Positions 2,215 to 34,632 of a stretch of DNA of 64,000 nt are shown here, one piece after another. Origin of the DNA: Clostridiales bacterium (GTDB lineage: Bacteria > Bacillota > Clostridia > Caldicoprobacterales > DTU083); NCBI GenBank assembly GCA_012842605.1, contig DUSN01000062.1:33542-97541 (forward strand), written 5' to 3'. Below the pieces are notes generated by a model. The model had not been told where the DNA came from. It did not search any database and saw nothing but the letters and a program-made list of their open reading frames with translations. The first letter of the stretch is position 1; every line of letters begins with the position of its first letter. The position numbers and the translations under genes were made by a program.

Positions 2215-2264
2215 GGGGACAGTTCTCAATTATCTGATATCTTAAAAAAATGAGAACTGTCCCC
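2215..2264. repeat. inverted pair of the GGGGACAGTTCTCA repeat (REPIN-like hairpin)
   Basis: GGGGACAGTTCTCA at 2215-2228 is followed 22 bases later by its exact reverse complement at 2251-2264, forming a 14-bp perfect stem. It lies just after the sigF terminator and before the spoVA genes. Head-to-head pairing of a short palindrome-like motif is the layout of REPIN elements mobilised by RAYT transposases, and a RAYT gene flanked by the same motif is in this window. Confidence 0.75.
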
Positions 2265-12371: not shown

Positions 12372-12402
12372 GGGGACAGTTAATGGGGACAGTTCTCAAT
12401 TA
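12372..12402 (+). repeat. GGGGACAGTTCTCAA repeat after the PBP stop codon
   Basis: A partial copy (GGGGACAGT, 12372-12380) and a full copy (GGGGACAGTTCTCAATTA, 12385-12402) begin one base after the TAA. Same motif as the RAYT-flanking repeats. Confidence 0.75.
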
Positions 12403-13186: not shown

Positions 13187-14547
13187 TGTTCAATACTCCT
13201 TTCAATCTTCTTTAACAGACGTCTTTTTCTTGTAAACAGTTCATCTCTCAGTTTAGATGAACCGTTATTATAGTCACCGTTGTTCCGAAGCCTGCTCGCC
13301 AGCTGTATGGCTCTTTCTGTACACTCAAGTGCTTTTTTATAGTCCTTTTTGCCATGTTCCAGGTACTTGGCCATCTCAACAAGAGGAAATATCAGCATGC
13401 TGCCCTCTTCCCCCGCCAATTCCTCCCACAGATTCATGGCTTCTTCAGGCCCGTCATGCCTCTTTCTTAAATAAGCAAATCGCTTTTTTGCATCTACCTT
13501 AAGTGAATGTATCACAGCAGTATCAATGCAGCATTTATAGCACTCCGAAGCTTCTTGAATTCTATGGTTTCTTTCCAGTTCTTTTGCTATACTCAATAAC
13601 TCATGGGGATTTGCATAGCCAATCGGATTTTTGTACAATTTGCTTATATGTATCAGCAAAGCAGCCAAAGCCGCAATATCCCATTCGTTATGTTTTATTA
13701 CCTGCTTCATAGCATCAGTTTTTCTTGTTTCCAGATAATCAAAATAAATCTTTGGTATCAATTGTCCCGGAATGTCATTTTTCCTTTGCTGTTTAAGAAT
13801 TTTATCCTCGATAGAAACAAGGGAACAGCTCTCTAAAAAATTTCCCCATAACCGCCTTGCTACATGCAGCAAATCCAGGTGCGAATCCTCCCAGTACAAA
13901 GGCCGGAGCCTGGAATATACAAAACGGCTCTCCAGCAACGGCCAGTCAAAGGCTTTTCCATTAAATGTAACAAGTACTCGAAAATTTTTCAGTACATCCA
14001 GGACTGCTAATAACATAGGATATTCTTCGTCAAAGTCACGCATCAGATACTGCTCTATCACTAACCCGTTGTCCGTAAAATAGCCTATTCCTATTAAGAA
14101 CGGGTAAGTACCTGTTCCACCCGCCAAGCCGGTAGTTTCAGTATCTAACAACACTATATCCTGAATACAAATATCGCGGTCTAATCTTGTCCACCATCTA
14201 TTATCACTAAAGCTGGATGCCCACAGATCGGACAAATTAACTGAACCATATATTGTACTCTTACCATATATCGTTCGTTTCCTGATAAATGACCCATATG
14301 CTCCTATGATTGCCTGCCCGCCGAAATCCTCCATCCTTTCATTGCAGCCGACTGTTTTTCTGTCCGTATCAACTTTATTTCCATTGTTTATGGATTTATA
14401 TATGGGCTCATATGTGTCCAGGCTGCCATCATTTTCCGTGTAAGCAGTTTGTTCATGAACAGGCCGCTCTAAATTTCCGGCATCCGGATTATGCAAAGGG
14501 GAGTTGGATGACATTGCCTTGAGCTTGTTCTTCAAATTGGGTATCAC
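13177..14547 (-). CDS. yprB: DEDDh exonuclease YprB (MrfB-like)
   Basis: 456 residues from GTG 14547. The RNase H-like nuclease core shows L-L-D-T-E-T-T-G-L (D-x-E), V-T-F-N-G-K-A-F-D-W-P-L-L (second acidic motif) and H-N-E-W-D-I-A-A-L (His and Asp), followed by a helical TPR-like C-terminus. In Bacillus, YprB (MrfB) works with helicase YprA (MrfA) to repair mitomycin C damage. The frame opens farther upstream (to 14634), but GGGAGG eight bases before GTG 14547 and the family-like start I-P-N-L-K-N-K-L support this choice. It overlaps the helicase gene by 59 bases, unusually far, implying tight coupling. Confidence 0.85.
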   Translation of the reverse strand: MIPNLKNKLKAMSSNSPLHNPDAGNLERPVHEQTAYTENDGSLDTYEPIYKSINNGNKVDTDRKTVGCNERMEDFGGQAIIGAYGSFIRKRTIYGKSTIYGSVNLSDLWASSFSDNRWWTRLDRDICIQDIVLLDTETTGLAGGTGTYPFLIGIGYFTDNGLVIEQYLMRDFDEEYPMLLAVLDVLKNFRVLVTFNGKAFDWPLLESRFVYSRLRPLYWEDSHLDLLHVARRLWGNFLESCSLVSIEDKILKQQRKNDIPGQLIPKIYFDYLETRKTDAMKQVIKHNEWDIAALAALLIHISKLYKNPIGYANPHELLSIAKELERNHRIQEASECYKCCIDTAVIHSLKVDAKKRFAYLRKRHDGPEEAMNLWEELAGEEGSMLIFPLVEMAKYLEHGKKDYKKALECTERAIQLASRLRNNGDYNNGSSKLRDELFTRKRRLLKKIERSIEQWG

Positions 14548-16804
14548 CAAGTATTCCTCCCAGAATTTTTTGTGCCATATATTTGCCATTAGCTGATACC
14601 TCAGCAGCAGGTCCGACACAAGCTGGACAACCACTTTCGCAATAGCAGTTCGATATTACCTCATATGCTTTTTTAAACAACTCCAGATGAATCTCATAAA
14701 GCCGCTCACTGAAACCAATACCGCCAGGACAGCTGTCATAGATATAGATTGTGGGTTTATGAGTAAAAGGAGATTTAACATGATATACAACATGGATATC
14801 ACGGGGATCACACATCAGGTAAAGCGGTGCTATATGTCCTAAGACATTGGCTATTCCCATCAATCCGTTCTGCAAATCATCCTGGCTTTCGATGCCTTTC
14901 GGAATATCATTCAATGTCATCCAATAGGCTGTTGTCTGCAGTTCCATTTCCGGTAAACGAACAGGCCCCCAGCCCAGGTTCTCATGTGTATCAAACTTTA
15001 TCTTCTTGAACATGGTAACGAGAGATGTTACCATGACATCACCCCAGCTTCTGCCTGTCTTCCCCTCATCCTTTGTGCTAAATACATCCAAAACCTTTAA
15101 AGTAACTGCCAGGTTGGCATCAGTATAATAATCCACATCCACTTTTCTTACATATGCCTTCTTTTCCTCAAAATCCAGTTTTTCAACCTGATACTGGACA
15201 CCTTCATGAATGTAAATGGCTTCCTCATGGAGCAGCTGTGGTGCACTGAAGCGATCCATTTCACCAATTACCCGGTGCTGTGGAGTGGTTATATCTATAA
15301 TGATAAAGTTTTCATTGGCAGCTGTACGAAGGCTGACTGAATCAGCCGGAAAATTGTCCGCTGTCCAGTACCAGCGGCTGCCTACATGCCGCAGCACCTT
15401 TTCCTCTTCCAGAAACTCCAGTATTTGATCTAATGAATCAACTCCGAAGGTTTCTCCGTCTTCAAACGGCAGCTCGAAAGCAGCACATTTGATATGGGAC
15501 ATTAGAATATACAGGTTATTGGGATTGATTAGTCCGTGTTCAGGACTGGATTCAAGGAAAAATTCAGGATGCTGTATAATATATTGATCCAGCGGATTGC
15601 TGCTGGCAACTATCATTGCAAGAGCTGTATCATTTCTGCGCCCTGCCCGGCCGGCCTGCTGCCATGTGCTTGCTATAGTACCGGGATAACCGCACATTAT
15701 GCATGCCTGCAGCCTTCCTATGTCAATGCCCAGCTCAAGCGCATTGGTGCTGACTACACCTAATATATTGCCTGATCTGAGCCCTTGTTCAATTTCACGC
15801 CTCTGGCTTGGCAGATAGCCGCCGCGATATCCTCTGACACTGTTGGATTTGCCCAGCTTATCCTGTACCAATTGCTTCAGATAGGTGACCAGAACTTCCA
15901 CAGTAAGACGGCTTTTGGCAAATAAAATAGTTTGTATTCCATTAAGTATAAAATTGGTGGCAAGCCTTCTTGTTTCTAAAAGAGAGCTTCTCCTAATGCC
16001 TAATTGCTTGTTCACTACAGGTGGATTGTAGAATATCATATGTTTTTTGCCGGACGGAGCACCGTTTTCATCTATTAGTTCCACTTCCTGCCCAATAATG
16101 CGCTCAGTCAGTTCTTTGGGGTTTGCTATAGTTGCTGAGCAGCAGATGAATTGCGGATCAGATCCATAGAATTTGCAAATACGGTGCAATCGGCGAAGGA
16201 CATTGGCTAAATGGCTTCCGAATATCCCCCTATAAGAATGAATCTCATCTATTACAACAAACTTAAGATTCTCAAACAATTTAACCCATTTTGTATGATG
16301 AGGCATTATCCCGGAATGAAGCATATCAGGATTGGTAACAACAATATGGCCGGCTTGGCGGATTGCCTTCCTGGCGCTGACTGGTGTATCTCCATCATAT
16401 GTATATGTCTTGATAGGATGGCCCAGCAAGTCCATAATTTCATGCAGCTCACTCACCTGATCCTGGGACAGCGCTTTTGTTGGGAACAAATACAATGCTC
16501 TTGCATCGTCGTTATTCAGTATTTCATTAATAACAGGAAGATTATAACAGAGTGTCTTTCCTGATGCAGTAGGAGTTACTACAACTATATTTTTTCGCTG
16601 GAATACCAATTCAACTGCTTTGGACTGATGTGAGTACAGCTGATGTATGCCTTTCTTTTTTAGTACTATTTCCAGCTCAGGTCGCAGCCCTTTGGGAAAT
16701 GAGCCATACACCGCACTCTTGGATTCCATTTCTTTCCAATATGTAATATTTTGCATGATTTCCGGGCTGCTGCGTATATGATCTACCAGTTGATCAATAT
16801 TCAT
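14489..16804 (-). CDS. yprA: DEAD/DEAH-box helicase YprA (MrfA-like, DUF1998)
   Basis: 771-residue superfamily 2 helicase. Motif I is T-P-T-A-S-G-K-T (77-84), motif II V-V-I-D-E-I-H-S-Y, motif III C-S-A-T-I-A, and motif VI Q-A-G-R-A-G-R. The C-terminal DUF1998 region carries the four-cysteine cluster C-Y-C-E-S-G-C-P-A-C, as in MrfA, where it binds zinc. Bacillus MrfA is a 3'-5' helicase acting in UvrABC-independent repair of mitomycin C crosslinks and adducts. First gene of a three-gene unit (yprA-yprB-TPR). No LexA box is seen in the 300 bases upstream; instead there are two copies of the RAYT-type repeat. Confidence 0.9.
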   Translation of the reverse strand: MNIDQLVDHIRSSPEIMQNITYWKEMESKSAVYGSFPKGLRPELEIVLKKKGIHQLYSHQSKAVELVFQRKNIVVVTPTASGKTLCYNLPVINEILNNDDARALYLFPTKALSQDQVSELHEIMDLLGHPIKTYTYDGDTPVSARKAIRQAGHIVVTNPDMLHSGIMPHHTKWVKLFENLKFVVIDEIHSYRGIFGSHLANVLRRLHRICKFYGSDPQFICCSATIANPKELTERIIGQEVELIDENGAPSGKKHMIFYNPPVVNKQLGIRRSSLLETRRLATNFILNGIQTILFAKSRLTVEVLVTYLKQLVQDKLGKSNSVRGYRGGYLPSQRREIEQGLRSGNILGVVSTNALELGIDIGRLQACIMCGYPGTIASTWQQAGRAGRRNDTALAMIVASSNPLDQYIIQHPEFFLESSPEHGLINPNNLYILMSHIKCAAFELPFEDGETFGVDSLDQILEFLEEEKVLRHVGSRWYWTADNFPADSVSLRTAANENFIIIDITTPQHRVIGEMDRFSAPQLLHEEAIYIHEGVQYQVEKLDFEEKKAYVRKVDVDYYTDANLAVTLKVLDVFSTKDEGKTGRSWGDVMVTSLVTMFKKIKFDTHENLGWGPVRLPEMELQTTAYWMTLNDIPKGIESQDDLQNGLMGIANVLGHIAPLYLMCDPRDIHVVYHVKSPFTHKPTIYIYDSCPGGIGFSERLYEIHLELFKKAYEVISNCYCESGCPACVGPAAEVSANGKYMAQKILGGILGDTQFEEQAQGNVIQLPFA

Positions 16805-16870: not shown

Positions 16871-16909
16871 GGGGACGTTTCTCAATTTTCCTGTGGGGAC
16901 ATTTCTCAG
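16871..16909 (+). repeat. two diverged GGGGAC(A/G)TTTCTCA repeats, RAYT downstream flank
   Basis: GGGGACGTTTCTCAA (16871-16885) and GGGGACATTTCTCAG (16895-16909) are direct repeats at a 24-base step. They lie between the yprA start and the RAYT gene, in inverted orientation to the copy on the other side of the RAYT. The rest of the 16805-17111 gap is AT-rich; a 12-bp imperfect stem at about 17083-17118 covers the RAYT stop codon. Confidence 0.7.
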
Positions 16910-17111: not shown

Positions 17112-18047
17112 TTATGCAGCATTTTTCAGAAGTTCACTAAAAATCTGCGAATATAAGGTGTGTCCGCTATTTATAAGTTCATACCCCCTATCACATAATT
17201 GTGAACAACAGGCTATAGTTATAGAAGGTATTATACGACATATTTCTCTATAACTTAATCCTGCTAAAACTCTCAGGACATATGCACAGAACGCCCTGTA
17301 ATTAATCAGTTCCCTTTTAGCCTTCCATGCAATATTTATAATATTATCATGCGCAGAGCCTGTCAGTTTACTGGATACGTAACTTACCACATTATCGGGT
17401 GAAATGCTTCTCAATATTATGCTTCTACCACTGATATATTCATTTTCAGCAGCAGTAGAAAATTGCTCATCATAATCCTTTAAATTATCTGTTTTATTTT
17501 GATACTTGACAAATTCATAGTATTTCTTTATAAAGCTCTCTCCATCAGCATGAAAAAGCTCCATTATAAAGCTCTTATCTATAATCTTATGGGTGTCTTC
17601 CCGTTTGCCTATATAGATTCCATATGAAGAATAGGGATAATCCTCTTCCCTGCCGTTATATTCGGGAATATCCTTAGGATTGTTGTGTATATAAGCAGAT
17701 ACTGCTAAGTTATACCGTTCTGAAGATAATATCCTGCTTTGAAATCTATCCTGGAATAAATGCCCGTGCCTATTATATTTTGTATTGTAATATCTAACAT
17801 AAGCCGTATTCAAACTGTGCATAAATTTCGACACATCAAAACCTTTAGGATCCAGATGAATATGAACATGGTTATTCATCAAGCAGTATGCATATACACT
17901 AGCTTGGTATTTATCTGTATAACGTTTGAGCAAAGCCAAATAGTAGTCCTTGTCCTCATTTTCCCTAAACAGAAGTATTTCTGAGGAACTTCTGCTCATA
18001 ATGTGATAGATAGCCAGTTCATGCTTTTGCCGTGCTCTTCTGGGCAT
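17112..18047 (-). CDS. REP-associated tyrosine transposase (RAYT, Y1_Tnp family)
   Basis: 311 residues from ATG 18047, which has AGGTGG eight bases upstream. The Y1 HUH nuclease core is visible: M-P-R-R-A-R at the start, the HUH-type motif N-N-H-V-H-I-H-L, G-H-L-F-Q-D-R-F-Q-S, and the catalytic tyrosine context V-S-A-Y-I-H-N-N-P. A C-terminal region with G-L-S-Y-R-E-I-C resembles a helix-turn-helix tail seen in longer RAYTs. RAYTs cut and move short palindromic repeats in trans and are usually single-copy domesticated genes, not insertion sequences. Here GGGGACAGTTCTCAA-type repeats flank it on both sides and recur through the window. The promoter carries a LexA box. Confidence 0.88.
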   Translation of the reverse strand: MPRRARQKHELAIYHIMSRSSSEILLFRENEDKDYYLALLKRYTDKYQASVYAYCLMNNHVHIHLDPKGFDVSKFMHSLNTAYVRYYNTKYNRHGHLFQDRFQSRILSSERYNLAVSAYIHNNPKDIPEYNGREEDYPYSSYGIYIGKREDTHKIIDKSFIMELFHADGESFIKKYYEFVKYQNKTDNLKDYDEQFSTAAENEYISGRSIILRSISPDNVVSYVSSKLTGSAHDNIINIAWKAKRELINYRAFCAYVLRVLAGLSYREICRIIPSITIACCSQLCDRGYELINSGHTLYSQIFSELLKNAA

Positions 18048-18105
18048 AACAATAACCACCTATCAAAGGTAATTAACTAAAGGATAGATTTATAAGTTTA
18101 ATTAT

Positions 18106-18245: not shown

Positions 18246-18296
18246 AGGGACATTTCACAATAATATTAGTAAGTAATAAAATTGAGAACTGTCCCC
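18246..18296. repeat. inverted pair of the GGGGACAGTTCTCAA repeat, RAYT upstream flank
   Basis: A diverged copy (GGGACATTTCACAAT, 18247-18261) faces a full reverse-complement copy (ATTGAGAACTGTCCCC, 18281-18296). The two can pair with two mismatches around a 19-base loop. The full copy ends six bases after the lpdA stop codon, so this REPIN-like pair occupies the gap between lpdA and the RAYT promoter. Confidence 0.72.
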
Positions 18297-18302
18297 ATTA
18301 TT

Positions 18303-19697
18303 TTATATATGGATAGCCCAGCCTTCTACTGTGCGCATGGATTCCATTACCGCTTCTGATATAGTAGGATGAGCATGTATCATGTTGGCTATATCCTCCG
18401 GCAGCAACTCAGCTGTCTTTGCCAGCAGTATTTCATGAATAATCTCTGTTGCATCAGCACCAATGCAATGGGCTCCTAAAATTTCTTTTGTGTTAGGATC
18501 ATACAGTACCTTTACCATTCCGTCAGGCTGTTCTACGGCAACAGACTTACCAGCTCCTCTGTATGGAAAGCTTGCTTTTTTATATTCTACAGAATCCTGC
18601 TTTGCCCGCCATTCAGAATATCCGAAGCTTGCTACCTGAGGATCACAATAAACAGCACTTGGAATACTCATTGGATCAATTCTCTTCGGAGGATTCAACC
18701 CCGCTATATGCTCAACTGCAATTTCTCCTTCCTTTGACGCTACATGAGCCAATAAAGGAGTATTGATAACATCTCCTATTGCATAAATGCCGGGTACATT
18801 TGTCTCATAGTAGTCTCCAACCTGGATAAAGCCTTTATCTGTTAGCACCCCTACCGATTCCAGCCCAAGCCCCGAGGAGTTGGGTACCCTTCCAACAGCA
18901 ACAAGAATCTGATTTACTGAAATTGTTTTATGTTTCTCATTATTGTCTGCCAAAACTACAGAAACATGGTCTTCTAATTTTTCCATTGATAAGGCCTTGG
19001 TTTTCGTCATTACCTCTATTCCTCTGGCTCTAAATATCCTGGCTAAATAATTAGATATTTCCTCATCCTCAAGGGGCAAAATTCGATCCATTAACTCCAC
19101 CAAAATTACTTTTACTCCGAAAGAATTCATTATATATGCAAACTCGACACCAATTGCTCCGCCGCCTATTATCAGTATCCTTTCCGGAAGTCTCTCCAGC
19201 ATTAACGCACCTGTAGATGAAAGCACATATTTTTCATCAAAAGGAAACCCCGGGACTTCCCTTGGTCTTGAACCTGTAGCAATAATGATATTCTTGCCTG
19301 TAACTTTCCTGCCCGATGAAAGGTTTACCTCATTCTTACCAATAATTGTTCCTGTACCTTCAAACAAATCTACTTTATTTTTCTTCAGCAGATAACTTAC
19401 TCCCTTAGACAGTGTATCCGCTGCTTTTCTTGACTTTTTAAAAACTTTTCCATAATCGAATCCTTTACGATCTATTGATATGCCCAGTTCTTCCATAGCA
19501 GACAAACTGCGATACAGCTCTGCCTGGTGAATCAGTGCTTTAGAAGGGATACAGCCTACATTAAGGCATACGCCGCCCACCTTTTCCTTCTCTATTATGG
19601 CAGCCCTTAACCCCAGCTGGGATGCACGGATAGCAGCCACATAACCCCCCGGTCCGCCTCCGATTATAACAACATCATACTCATATGATTGGTTCAT
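18303..19697 (-). CDS. lpdA: dihydrolipoyl dehydrogenase (E3)
   Basis: 464 residues. FAD-binding G-G-G-P-G-G-Y-V-A-A, the redox disulfide G-G-V-C-L-N-V-G-C-I-P-S-K, the NAD fold G-G-G-A-I-G-V-E-F-A, Y-A-I-G-D-V, and the C-terminal catalytic H-A-H-P-T-I-S-E are all present. It reoxidises dihydrolipoamide on E2 and reduces NAD+. An upstream in-frame ATG exists, but ATG 19697 is preceded by GGAGGGGG and matches the family N-terminus. Last gene of the pdhA-pdhB-pdhC-lpdA cluster, 57 bases after pdhC. Confidence 0.95.
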   Translation of the reverse strand: MNQSYEYDVVIIGGGPGGYVAAIRASQLGLRAAIIEKEKVGGVCLNVGCIPSKALIHQAELYRSLSAMEELGISIDRKGFDYGKVFKKSRKAADTLSKGVSYLLKKNKVDLFEGTGTIIGKNEVNLSSGRKVTGKNIIIATGSRPREVPGFPFDEKYVLSSTGALMLERLPERILIIGGGAIGVEFAYIMNSFGVKVILVELMDRILPLEDEEISNYLARIFRARGIEVMTKTKALSMEKLEDHVSVVLADNNEKHKTISVNQILVAVGRVPNSSGLGLESVGVLTDKGFIQVGDYYETNVPGIYAIGDVINTPLLAHVASKEGEIAVEHIAGLNPPKRIDPMSIPSAVYCDPQVASFGYSEWRAKQDSVEYKKASFPYRGAGKSVAVEQPDGMVKVLYDPNTKEILGAHCIGADATEIIHEILLAKTAELLPEDIANMIHAHPTISEAVMESMRTVEGWAIHI

Positions 19698-19754
19698 ATT
19701 TCCCCCTCCAAATTGGCTCAAGTACACTTTTTCATAAGAATAATGTTACTTATG

Positions 19755-21095
19755 TCAGAACAACGCACGAATCGGATCCTCAATAATATCTTTCAAATCT
19801 TTAAGGAAGGCTGCTCCTGCTGCTCCGTCAATTACCCTGTGGTCACATGAAAGAGTCATCTTCATTTGTGTTTGAATTGTAATATTATCGTCCTGATCAA
19901 CTGCCGGAACCTTTTTCATTTCTCCGACAGCTAAAATAGCTGAACCCGGCGGATTAATTACAGCAGTAAACTCTTCAATCCCAAATGAGCCAAGGTTGCT
20001 TATAGTAAATCCTGCATTCTGATATTCATCGGGAGCCAATTTATTGTTTCTGGCCTTTTCTATCAATACCAGAAGTTCCTTATTAATTGCAATTACGCCT
20101 TTATTTCCGCAATCACGGACAACAGGAGTTATCAACCCGTCAGGCTGTGCAACAGCCAACCCAATGTCAACTTGTTTTCTTTGAATAATTGTATCTCCAT
20201 TCCAGGTTGCATTCACCATAGGATGCTTTTTGAGTGCTTCAGCAGCATACTTAATAAAAAATGCATTAAAGGAAACTTTTTCCTGCAGGGATTCATTTAA
20301 TCTCTTTCTGGTTTGAATAAGATTGTCTACATTTACAGAGACAGTCAGATAATAATGAGGTGCGCTGAATTTGGACTCCGACAGACGCTGAGCAATAATT
20401 TTTCTCTTTTGCGATACCGGAATCTCAATATCACCGACAGCTGCGACAACAGCTTGTACCGGCGTTGAAATCTTAAAGGCTTGCTGTTCTTTCCCTTGCT
20501 GAATCTCAATTTTCTGTGCTTCAGTCACATTATATCCTTTAGCCATACTGCTTATTTCAGTCACATTGCTCTTATCAAGTTTATCCTTCATGTATCTTTC
20601 TATATCGGCTTTAACTATGCGGCCAGCCGGACCGCTTCCATTAATATCGCTTAAATCAATTTTATTCATTTCTGCTATTCTACGTGCTAAAGGCGATGCT
20701 TTAATACGAGTATCACCATATGCTTTTATTGATTCATTTTTTATATATATTTGAGAACTGTCCCCAAAGTCATTTTTGCTTAATTCTTGAGAACTGTCCC
20801 CACCATCGATTTTTTGAGAACTGTCCCCATCATCAAGTATTTGAGAAATGTCCCCGAGGTTGTCGCCAATGATGGCAATGACCTCACCTACTGCTGCTTT
20901 TTCACCTTCCTGGACCAGAATTTTAAGCAAAATTCCTTCTGCAGTGGATTCATAGTCCATTGTAGCCTTATCGGTTTCTACTTCACACAATATATCACCG
21001 GCCTCAACCCGGTCTCCTTCTTTTTTATGCCACCTAGCCAAAATTCCTTCTTCCATGGTAGGTGACAAGGCAGTCATAAAAACTTTTTCAGCCAT
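19755..21095 (-). CDS. pdhC: pyruvate dehydrogenase E2, dihydrolipoamide acetyltransferase
   Basis: 446 residues: one lipoyl domain (1-78, lipoylated Lys43 in E-T-D-K-A-T), a linker, a peripheral subunit-binding domain (about 131-168, A-S-P-L-A-R-R-I-A and G-S-G-P-A-G-R-I), a second linker, and the acyltransferase core with H419-R-V-I-D-G. It carries acetyl groups from E1 to CoA and binds E3. The first linker (81-115) is odd: it contains G-D-I-S-Q, G-D-S-S-Q, G-D-S-S-Q, G-D-S-S-Q, the in-frame translation of four copies of the genome's GGGGACAGTTCTCAA repeat. The linker is not the Ala/Pro-rich type usual for E2. Catalytic residues are intact, so the enzyme should be functional. Confidence 0.92.
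   Translation of the reverse strand: MAEKVFMTALSPTMEEGILARWHKKEGDRVEAGDILCEVETDKATMDYESTAEGILLKILVQEGEKAAVGEVIAIIGDNLGDISQILDDGDSSQKIDGGDSSQELSKNDFGDSSQIYIKNESIKAYGDTRIKASPLARRIAEMNKIDLSDINGSGPAGRIVKADIERYMKDKLDKSNVTEISSMAKGYNVTEAQKIEIQQGKEQQAFKISTPVQAVVAAVGDIEIPVSQKRKIIAQRLSESKFSAPHYYLTVSVNVDNLIQTRKRLNESLQEKVSFNAFFIKYAAEALKKHPMVNATWNGDTIIQRKQVDIGLAVAQPDGLITPVVRDCGNKGVIAINKELLVLIEKARNNKLAPDEYQNAGFTISNLGSFGIEEFTAVINPPGSAILAVGEMKKVPAVDQDDNITIQTQMKMTLSCDHRVIDGAAGAAFLKDLKDIIEDPIRALF
20751..20855 (-). repeat. four in-frame GGGGACAGTTCTCAA repeats inside pdhC
   Basis: Copies (written on the minus strand) lie at 20751-20765, 20787-20801, 20814-20828 and 20841-20855. Three match GGGGACAGTTCTCAA exactly; the copy at 20841 has GGGGACATTTCTCAA. 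Steps of 36, 27 and 27 bases are all multiples of three, so every copy is read as G-D-(S/I)-S-Q. Confidence 0.9.
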
Positions 21096-22139: not shown

Positions 22140-23111
22140 TTAAGCGTAGATATCTTCATACATTGCCTCAAGGGAAGGCTCTTCACTTTGTTCCGCATAT
22201 TGCACGGACTCATTAACGATATCTTTTTGTTTTTTATCCAGCAGGGTATATTCGTCTTCTGTAAGCATTCCTGCCTCCATCATCTCAGTTTTAAAAATAA
22301 TTATTGGATCCTTGCTTTTGTATGCTTCCAGTTCTTCCTTGGTTCGATATTTGGCCGGATCGCTCATAGAATGCCCTCGATAGCGATAGGTCTGAATCTC
22401 CAGGAATACCGGAGTGTTCTTTTCTTTAACAAGTTTAATTGCCTTTTTTGTTTCTTCATATACAGTCAGGACATTCATGCCATCAACCTGCCAGGCAGGT
22501 ATTTCATAAGATGCCCCCATAACTGAATAATCATGAACGGAAGAAACCCTCTTGTAATTGGTGCCCATGCCATACTGGTTATTTTCACAAATGAAAATTA
22601 TAGGAAGATTCCAGATTTTTGCCATATTCATGGTTTCATGGAATACACCCTGGTGAATAGCCCCGTCTCCGAAATAGCAAAGAACCACACCGTCTTCCTG
22701 GTTATATTTCAGCTTGAACGCTACTCCTGCGGCAATTGGAATATGGCCTCCTACAATACCATTTCCTCCGTACATATGCTTATCTGCATCAAACATATGC
22801 ATGGATCCGCCTTTTCCCTTTGAACAGCCTGTGGCCTTGCCGAATAATTCCGCCATGGCTGCATTTGGATCCATACCGCATGCTAAAGCATGCCCATGGT
22901 CCCGATAACCAGTTAAGACATAGTCTTTTTTCAAATCCAATGCCGCGATTGATCCTACAGCAACTGCCTCCTGCCCGATATATAAATGACAAAAACCGCC
23001 GATTTTACGCAAGCCGTACATTTGAGCCGACTTTTCCTCAAATCTGCGAATTAATAGCATTTGCTCCAACAAGCCCATTAGAAATGCCTTTTCATATTGA
23101 TTTACTTTCAA
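22140..23111 (-). CDS. pdhA: pyruvate dehydrogenase E1 component, alpha subunit
   Basis: 323 residues from TTG 23111, which has GGGAGGG upstream; an ATG farther up at 23126 lacks such a site. Motifs: R-R-F-E-E-K, G-G-F-C-H-L-Y-I-G-Q-E-A-V-A-V-G, the TPP-binding G-D-G-A-I-H-Q-G-V-F-H-E-T-M-N, and the phospho-loop-like Y-R-Y-R-G-H-S-M-S-D-P. The G-G-F-C-H-L-Y-I-G-Q-E segment resembles the PDH type more than acetoin dehydrogenase, but the substrate is not proven. First gene of the PDH cluster, 81 bases downstream of a split-barrel flavin gene on the same strand. Confidence 0.88.
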   Translation of the reverse strand: MKVNQYEKAFLMGLLEQMLLIRRFEEKSAQMYGLRKIGGFCHLYIGQEAVAVGSIAALDLKKDYVLTGYRDHGHALACGMDPNAAMAELFGKATGCSKGKGGSMHMFDADKHMYGGNGIVGGHIPIAAGVAFKLKYNQEDGVVLCYFGDGAIHQGVFHETMNMAKIWNLPIIFICENNQYGMGTNYKRVSSVHDYSVMGASYEIPAWQVDGMNVLTVYEETKKAIKLVKEKNTPVFLEIQTYRYRGHSMSDPAKYRTKEELEAYKSKDPIIIFKTEMMEAGMLTEDEYTLLDKKQKDIVNESVQYAEQSEEPSLEAMYEDIYA

Positions 23112-23192
23112 CGATATCCCTCCCATTGCCAACAATGCAAAGACTAAGTATCAAGATAACAATATTTTTCAATTTTCTGATATCTGATGGTG

Positions 23193-23633: not shown

Positions 23634-23729
23634 TTTACCATCCTCCACTGAAGATTGTTACTTAATATATACCCATGAACTTATGCTGCAAAACACCCAG
23701 CAGTCTCGCAGTCCCCGGGGACTTTCCCC

Positions 23730-23747
23730 GGGGACAGTTCTCAATTT
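23730..23747 (+). repeat. GGGGACAGTTCTCAA repeat
   Basis: GGGGACAGTTCTCAATTT at 23730-23747, with a neighbouring GTCCCCGGGGAC palindrome (23711-23722) that may be a rearranged half copy. It stands about 100 bases upstream of the split-barrel gene. The remainder of the 23634-24037 gap is AT-rich. Confidence 0.7.
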
Positions 23748-31238: not shown

Positions 31239-31244
31239 TAAAAT

Positions 31245-31258
31245 TTAGAACTGTCCCC
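31245..31258 (-). repeat. GGGGACAGTTCT repeat, partial
   Basis: TTAGAACTGTCCCC (31245-31258) is the reverse complement of the dispersed motif with the TCA end altered. It lies between the hydrolase and the duplicated gene pair. Confidence 0.65.
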
Positions 31259-34590: not shown

Positions 34591-34632
34591 TTGAGCACTG
34601 TACCCATGATTTAAAAATTGAGAACTGTCCCC
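34591..34632 (-). repeat. two GGGGACAGTTCTCAA repeats after the L,D-transpeptidase stop
   Basis: A diverged copy (TTGAGCACTGTACCC, 34591-34605) and a full copy (ATTGAGAACTGTCCCC, 34617-34632) lie at a 27-base step, the same period as in pdhC. The full copy ends two bases after the stop codon of the next gene. Confidence 0.75.

What the first reader, a model, noticed from the sequence alone, without database searches (positions are those of the whole stretch)
20751..20855. Four repeat copies translated in frame inside the E2 subunit of pyruvate dehydrogenase
Between the lipoyl and E3-binding domains of PdhC, four copies of GGGGACA(G/T)TTCTCAA are read as G-D-(S/I)-S-Q, with steps of 36, 27 and 27 bases, all multiples of three. 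The E2 linker is normally flexible and Ala/Pro-rich, so it could tolerate insertions. This looks like a mobile repeat turned into protein sequence.
Basis: seen in the sequence. Interest (0 to 1): 0.82.

Follow-up and report, generated by a model that had tools for sequence, protein, structure and literature searches.

The report
Transposase end-repeat written into enzyme genes
A 15-letter DNA word that flanks a predicted transposase gene also lies four times inside a nearby gene for a core metabolic enzyme, where it is in the reading frame and would become protein; related bacteria carry the same word letter-perfect in several genes, a sister species without the transposase gene shows no copy in its draft genome, and the transposase therefore likely spread and preserved it.

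Summary
In detail: four GGGGACA(G/T)TTCTCAA copies, all in one frame, lie between the lipoyl and E3-binding domains of PdhC. The word flanks a Y1 (HUH) transposase gene two genes downstream, which matches the published TIRYT kind (terminal repeats with GGGGWSAS). Five genomes of the family keep this gene between lpd and a helicase-like gene, and all five have in-frame units in PdhC; the four relatives with PdhC but no transposase have none. G006, sister of a carrier, lacks the gene at that place and has no match in its 89%-complete genome. The word is also in frame in AroA, an L,D-transpeptidase and other proteins. In-gene steps are multiples of three (15 of 15; non-coding 19 of 47). Of 752 five-codon windows with identical residues in four carriers, three are identical in DNA, and all three are this word; one is a native site in an HtrA-like protease. 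So the word is conserved as DNA, beyond the protein. Copy 1 in the window overlies native residues; it is not an insertion. Mobility, transposase agency and expression are inferred.

The parts
20841..20855 (-). copy 1, GGGGACATTTCTCAA, read GDISQ; overlies the native GEDISxLL segment without length change
20814..20828 (-). copy 2, GGGGACAGTTCTCAA, read GDSSQ
20787..20801 (-). copy 3, GGGGACAGTTCTCAA, read GDSSQ
20751..20765 (-). copy 4, GGGGACAGTTCTCAA, read GDSSQ
19755..21095 (-). pdhC, E2 dihydrolipoamide acetyltransferase; linker residues 90-128 modelled with pLDDT below 50
   Evidence: Pfam PF00364, PF02817, PF00198; AlphaFold2 model
17112..18059 (-). Y1/HUH tyrosine transposase gene of the TIRYT kind
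   Evidence: Pfam Y1_Tnp; HUH and YIHNNP motifs; best PDB fold match 4er8, REP-associated tyrosine transposase
18282..18296 (-). flanking repeat upstream of the transposase gene (sense orientation)
18246..18260 (+). inverted partner, 2 mismatches
16895..16909 (+). flanking repeat downstream of the transposase gene, 1 mismatch, inverted relative to the upstream one
16871..16885 (+). second downstream flanking copy, 1 mismatch
18303..19727 (-). lpd, dihydrolipoyl dehydrogenase, between pdhC and the transposase gene
   Evidence: TIGR01350
21145..22125 (-). pdhB, E1 beta
22140..23135 (-). pdhA, E1 alpha
14489..16804 (-). helicase-like gene (name from the look of its sequence, not searched in a family library) that follows the transposase gene in five genomes and follows lpd directly in G006
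2215..2264 (.). inverted pair of the word between two genes; pairs lie between the same two orthologous genes in G003 and G010
12385..12399 (+). intergenic copy downstream of o9860; clusters lie at the corresponding place in G001, G003 and G010, none in G012 or G006
23730..23744 (+). copy upstream of the pdh genes
31244..31258 (-). copy with 1 mismatch
34591..34632 (-). two copies, 2 and 0 mismatches

Best explanation
The four GGGGACA(G/T)TTCTCAA copies in the pdhC linker are copies of the word that flanks, in inverted orientation, a predicted Y1 (HUH) tyrosine transposase gene two genes downstream on the same strand; the enzyme likely spread the word and likely still preserves it, and the copies stay in one reading frame, so that they would be translated. 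Shown: sequence identity with the transposase-flanking repeats and with intergenic copies; one frame; unit steps in multiples of three; restriction of the PdhC units, among the nine family genomes with this PdhC, to the five with the transposase; identity of the word across genera at synonymous sites that are otherwise diverged; absence of matches in G006. Inferred mechanism: the transposase nicks and rejoins single-stranded DNA at the word, so that new copies arise mostly close to its own gene. Copies that hit disordered linkers or loops in a frame reading GDSSQ (or GQFS) survive selection. Recombination between the 15-bp copies then adds or removes units. Continued action of the transposase, or a host use of its sites, would keep the 15 bp identical; after loss of the gene the word erodes while any needed peptide stays.
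For: Word = flanking word: copies on both sides of the transposase gene here and of homologues in other families; in L126 and L131-L134 both ends carry the same variant, GGGGACGCTTCTCAA. Association: 5 of 5 family genomes with both genes have units in PdhC (G000, G001, G003, G010, G012), 0 of 4 with PdhC and no transposase (G002, G004, G006, G009). Vertical inheritance: same position lpd-transposase-helicase in five genomes; the transposase tree keeps the family together (100) and joins G001 with G010 (98). Loss: G006 is sister of G010 (99.8/99), has about 187 nt between lpd and the helicase gene and 0 matches at up to 1 mismatch in its genome against 34 in G010. Frame: 15 of 15 in-gene steps are multiples of three against 19 of 47 non-coding (Fisher P 3.5e-5). 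DNA-level conservation: 3 of 752 windows identical, all this word, 0.25 expected; with G006 in place of G010, 0 of 753. Other hosts: AroA units in G012 and G008 and not in 9 other orthologues; L,D-transpeptidase units in G012 and G008 and not in 11 others.
Against: No transposition event was observed and no biochemistry exists here. G000 has the transposase, yet its HtrA site is not the word (GGTGACAGCTCCCAG), so the enzyme does not convert every near match. G008 has 13 matches of the word but no detected transposase (71% complete; its PdhC was not found either). G012 has no copy at the o9860 junction where four carriers have one. The 27-nt step shared by G000, G003, G010 and G012 and near-identical spacers in the G012 L,D-transpeptidase fit plain duplication or loss of units without transposition. 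The coding set of 36 sites was picked by open frame and Pfam match, so the frame test is partly circular. HtrA was found because it carries the word, so its P value (8e-4 for four genomes) is post hoc. Windows overlap, and four of the eight test genes (HtrA, PdhC, AroA, L,D-transpeptidase) were chosen because they carry the word in some genome; the other four are neighbours. The branch that orders G000 and G004 has 74-76 support, so a loss in G004 or a later gain are both open; G000 and G012 are weakly placed in the transposase tree.
Confidence: 0.72

Rival explanations
1. One ancient insertion followed by ordinary duplication and deletion between direct repeats made the array; the transposase did nothing after the first event.
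For: 27-nt step kept in G000, G003, G010 and G012; P0006/P0007 lack one 9-residue unit present in P0012/P0014; 24-nt spacers with 2 differences in the G012 L,D-transpeptidase gene.
Against: Does not explain 15-bp identity across genera at synonymous sites, the separate arrays in AroA, L,D-transpeptidase and between genes, or the absence of all matches in G006.
Confidence: 0.3
2. The word is a host-selected site (for example a binding site through which the transposase or another protein acts on DNA or mRNA), and its presence in pdhC and htrA is regulatory.
For: Synonymous-site identity in coding sequence; conserved positions between the same genes; vertical inheritance of the transposase.
Against: Copy number and place vary between genera; G006 and G004 keep pdh and htrA genes without it; G000 htrA lacks it. 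No tested function.
Confidence: 0.3
3. GDSSQ is a protein-level linker motif that evolved by selection on the peptide; the DNA likeness is secondary.
For: The PdhC copies use the same frame, and copies 2-4 of the window protein sit in a stretch predicted to be disordered.
Against: The same DNA lies in many intergenic places and, in the L,D-transpeptidase, in another frame (GQFS); 13 of 14 GDSSQ peptides in PdhC use one of 576 possible codon sets; four relatives do without it.
Confidence: 0.04
4. Chance or assembly artefact.
For: G000 and the carriers are draft assemblies; some one-mismatch sites inside genes may be chance.
Against: 0 of 100 shuffles; the same arrangement in five draft genomes.
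Confidence: 0.01

Closest known systems
TIRYT / TIRtron (Di Nocera et al. 2013, PMC3733652; TnpAY1 subclass 2.1 of Quentin et al. 2018, PMC6006769)
   Same: RAYT-like Y1 transposase flanked by inverted repeats with GGGGWSAS; TIR words sometimes dispersed singly, in dimers or in groups.
   Different: In the parts of the two papers that I read, TIR words inside host genes, their synonymous-site conservation and their absence after transposase loss are not described.
Intragenic REPs and Rickettsia palindromic elements (RPE) (as told in PMC3733652)
   Same: A dispersed repeat inside reading frames without breaking them, in many unrelated proteins.
   Different: RPE and REP inserts are palindromes, more than half dimers or groups encoding 20-30 residues; here the unit is a 15-bp direct repeat of 5 residues without predicted hairpin, with its transposase gene close by.
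REP/REPIN with RAYT (PMC8049555, PMC6006769)
   Same: Vertically inherited Y1 transposase with a dispersed non-autonomous sequence population.
   Different: No GT[AG]G tag and no predicted hairpin in the 15-mer; the word clusters close to the gene and also lies inside protein genes.
REP insertions inside tnpAREP genes of subclass 2.4 (PMC6006769)
   Same: In-frame insertion of the repeat in a coding gene.
   Different: There the host gene is the transposase itself and the repeat is a REP.

Membership tests
TIRYT / TnpAY1 subclass 2.1 | HUH plus Y---NP motifs of class 2 | tested here: met
   H-[VF]-H-I-H and YIHNNP in all six aligned proteins
TIRYT / TnpAY1 subclass 2.1 | gene flanked by inverted repeats containing GGGGWSAS | tested here: met
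   GGGGACAG upstream; inverted one-mismatch copies GGGGACATTTCTCAG and GGGGACGTTTCTCAA downstream, which depart from the consensus at its last or last two letters; inverted pairs in L126 and L131-L134
TIRYT / TnpAY1 subclass 2.1 | C-terminal Bac_DnaA_C or HTH domain | tested here: inconclusive
   no C-terminal hit for the window protein at E 0.001; Bac_DnaA_C E 0.0095 in L066 and 3.6e-7 (30.5 bits, cut-off 31.5) in L068; C-terminal region modelled as helices
RAYT with REP | GT[AG]G-tagged palindrome next to the gene | tested here: not met
   15-mer without GTAG and without predicted DNA hairpin; NCBIfam NF047646 43.1 bits, cut-off 80; the flanks were not scanned for other tagged palindromes
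Y1 transposase fold | structure like IS200/RAYT | tested here: met
   top match 4er8_A, E 4e-5, TM 0.71 on target; IS608, IS200 and ISDra2 follow
[quoted passage not shown]
RPE-like coding repeat | palindromic unit | tested here: not met
   neighbouring coding-set copies up to 60 nt apart are all direct repeats (15 of 15); no hairpin predicted in the 15-mer
active mobile element | transposition observed | not testable with these tools
   no strains or time series held

The most novel reading that the evidence does not exclude
A vertically inherited HUH transposase writes and keeps its 15-bp recognition word inside conserved core genes, even over native codons without changing length (htrA in five genomes, pdhC copy 1 here), so that a transposase dictates stretches of host coding DNA; when the gene is lost the word fades synonymously while the peptide can stay, as in the htrA of G006.
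Probability: 0.3. Interest if true: 0.88.

Novelty: new variant of a known kind. Interest (0 to 1): 0.72.

Why it matters
What RAYT-like enzymes do for their hosts is an open question (PMC8049555 calls the RAYT's exact function unknown). Here a natural experiment exists: sister lineages with and without the gene, and a word that can be followed through synonymous sites of conserved genes. It makes transposase-dependent maintenance of a sequence population testable, and suggests a short mobile word becoming protein in several enzymes.

Tried and rejected
Hairpin idea: GGGGA-CAG-TTCTC looked like a wobble hairpin, but DNA folding of the 15-mer gave no structure; dropped. Tetranucleotide-tagged REP: rejected (no GTAG in the word). 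Origin of the word in the native HtrA site: rejected because transposases of other families carry the same or a sister word at their ends. Some sites in large reading frames (e.g. L246 solute-binding protein, L260 histidine kinase, L258 helicase-like frame) were left out of the coding set as likely native, antisense or chance, and so were sites in frames without family support (e.g. L206, L219, L220, L238, L243); sites upstream of ribosomal proteins S7 and L14 (L205, L253) were left out as probably untranslated. DegV, Oxidored_FMN, P-type ATPase, RNase_H_2 and DUF1614 sites were kept in the coding set of 36 without comparison with unit-free orthologues. In-gene sites outside the family: only reading-frame overlaps in single loci, not pursued. 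A search for direct doubles in a sample of the class found 3 of 391 genomes, all of this family. A mixed control set (G000, G004, G006, G010) gave 2 of 561 identical windows; they overlap and hold GGAGGGAATG near the 5' end of the htrA frame, which I read as the ribosome-binding site (reading by recall). One PDB sequence search with the transposase profile found nothing.

Full report
Four copies of GGGGACA(G/T)TTCTCAA lie on the minus strand at 20751-20855 with steps of 36, 27 and 27. They are in one frame of a 446-residue E2 between the lipoyl and E3-binding domains. The window holds 15 matches at up to two mismatches against 0.32 expected. The 3.28-Mb draft genome holds 20 matches at up to one mismatch, 17 of them on the window's 97.5-kb contig.

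What the word is. Directly downstream of lpd lies a gene for a Y1 (HUH) transposase of 315 residues (Pfam Y1_Tnp; HUH and YIHNNP motifs). Its AlphaFold2 model (mean pLDDT 79.9) matches first the REP-associated tyrosine transposase 4er8 and then IS200-type transposases. The word flanks this gene in inverted orientation (18282 minus strand, exact; 16895 and 16871 plus strand, one mismatch each). Homologues in other families have sister words: GGGGACGCTTCTCAA in inverted pairs in L126 and L131-L134; GGGGACATTTCTCAA upstream of the Anaerobacterium chartisolvens genes L127-L129, with weaker inverted matches downstream. This fits the published TIRYT kind, defined by terminal inverted repeats, many with GGGGWSAS (PMC3733652: abstract, passages and section 15 read) and placed mostly in TnpAY1 subclass 2.1 (PMC6006769: abstract, sections 11, 12 and first part of 15 read). 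The C-terminal DnaA-like domain of that subclass is only weakly seen.

Distribution. The family is held with 13 genomes. Of the nine that have this PdhC, five have the transposase (G000, G001, G003, G010, G012) and all five have units in the PdhC linker; four (G002, G004, G006, G009) have neither. G008 has 13 word matches but neither PdhC nor transposase was found in its 71% complete assembly. Among the 120 listed of 8000 scored E2 homologues, 14 have unit-like peptides (12 a full unit, P0008 only GDSSK, P0010 only DSSQ), all within P0001-P0016; P0083 has an unrelated DSSQ. In a sample of the class, 3 of 391 genomes have close direct doubles, all in this family (G008, G010 and G012 were not in the draw).

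History. The order pdhA-pdhB-pdhC-lpd-transposase-helicase is kept in the five carriers (the G012 contig ends within pdhA), and copies or clusters of the word sit beside the same neighbour gene (o9860) in G000, G001, G003 and G010, though not in G012. The transposase tree keeps the family together (100) and joins G001 with G010 (98); the other family branches are weak (38-77). In an eight-gene tree, G006 is the sister of G010 (99.8/99); other branches are weaker (G003 with G008/G012 23/49; G004 75.7/74). In G006, lpd and the helicase gene are about 187 nt apart, no transposase lies between, and the 89% complete genome has no match at up to one mismatch, against 34 in G010. Loss of the gene together with the words is the simplest reading; it is inferred.

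In other proteins. I mapped 161 sites (up to one mismatch) in 62 stretches, the same number as the matches of the six genomes G000, G001, G003, G008, G010 and G012. Besides PdhC and HtrA the word is in frame in AroA (G012, G008), an L,D-transpeptidase (G012 three, G008 two, frame GQFS), a metal P-type ATPase (G008, G012), an Oxidored_FMN enzyme, DegV, an RNase_H_2 protein (G012) and the C-terminus of a DUF1614 protein (G003). For AroA and the L,D-transpeptidase I compared orthologues: units only in G012 and G008, not in 9 and 11 others. The rest were not compared and may include native matches. Same-orientation steps up to 60 nt inside genes are multiples of three in 15 of 15 cases, outside genes in 19 of 47 (Fisher P 3.5e-5). 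Four further steps between a coding-set copy and a neighbouring copy outside the set are multiples of three as well. The coding set was chosen by frame and Pfam match, so this test is partly circular.

Conservation as DNA. In four carriers (G001, G003, G010, G012) I aligned eight genes by codon. Of 752 five-codon windows with identical residues, three are identical in DNA, with 0.25 expected from per-residue codon identity; all three are GGGGACAGTTCTCAA (two in PdhC, one in an HtrA-like protease, Trypsin_2 plus PDZ). With G000 added, 2 of 652 (both PdhC). With G006 in place of G010, 0 of 753. A mixed set (G000, G004, G006, G010) gave 2 of 561, overlapping, at a likely ribosome-binding site. 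The HtrA site is native: all 13 family members have L-G-[DEN]-S there; five have exactly the word, while G000, G004 and G006 encode GDSSQ or GDSSK with other codons. Codon frequencies make the exact word improbable for GDSSQ (5.9e-4). Caveats: HtrA was noticed because it carries the word; windows overlap; four of the eight genes were chosen for carrying the word; G000 has the transposase but not this HtrA word.

Copy 1 in the window, GDISQ, lies without gap on the conserved GEDISxLL segment of E2, so it too is an in-place word, whereas copies 2-4 lie in or at the edge of the disordered linker (residues 90-128, pLDDT below 50). The linker of G000 (56) and G012 (55) is no longer than that of the unit-free relatives (57-61); those of G010, G003 and G001 are 66, 71 and 74.

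Mechanism. Shown: identity with the word flanking the transposase gene, frame keeping, association and DNA-level conservation. Inferred: that the transposase spreads the word by single-strand cutting and joining, mostly near its own gene (64 of 148 matches in the five carriers lie on the transposase contigs, about 226 kb of 13.3 Mb: counts, contig lengths; assembly sizes partly rounded), that recombination between copies changes unit number, and that translation occurs. Whether the identity is kept by renewed copying, by conversion or by host use of the site is open; I favour transposase-dependent renewal, with host use as the main rival.

What is known. REPs within genes and Rickettsia RPEs in frame are known (PMC3733652); REPs inside tnpAREP genes keep the frame (PMC6006769); RAYTs are vertically inherited and their exact function is unknown (PMC8049555, passages). 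PMC2635572 was looked at in passages only and adds nothing on mechanism. A search for TIRYT found only two papers. The listings of searches showed no report of a TIR word conserved in host coding genes, in this open-access library only; most of the listed papers were not opened.

Noticed in passing
G000:C72, G003:C38, G010:C80, G001:C125, G012:C508: The word is strongly clustered near the transposase gene: 17 of 20, 14 of 35, 13 of 34, 9 of 26 and 11 of 33 matches on that contig, as if copies arise in cis.
   Followed up: partly
L126, L127-L129, L131-L134, L149, L160: Flanking words differ between transposase lineages mainly at positions 7-8 (GC, AT, AG) or 11-12, and in L126 and L131-L134 the same variant stands at both ends, suggesting co-evolution of enzyme and word.
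   Followed up: partly
L127, L128, L129, L134, L138: Anaerobacterium chartisolvens DSM 27016, a named strain, has at least five related transposase loci; three are near-identical in the tree and could be tested for activity.
   Followed up: no
window 12372-12399 and 23717-23744: A truncated word (GGGGACAGTTAAT; GGGGACTTTCCCC) directly precedes a full copy, as if formed by partial copying.
   Followed up: no
L254:2281-2373: Three 39-nt-spaced units in an L,D-transpeptidase gene with near-identical spacers look like a recent tandem duplication.
   Followed up: partly
L149: A Caloramator quimbayensis locus has 13 matches (up to 2 mismatches) in 21 kb, 10 of them the sister word (A/G)GGGACAGTTCACAA.
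   Followed up: no
non-coding copies in six genomes: Non-coding copies share a T-rich tail (T at +16 to +20 in 85, 102, 68, 94 and 87 of 139), weaker in in-gene copies except at +20 (28 of 36).
   Followed up: partly
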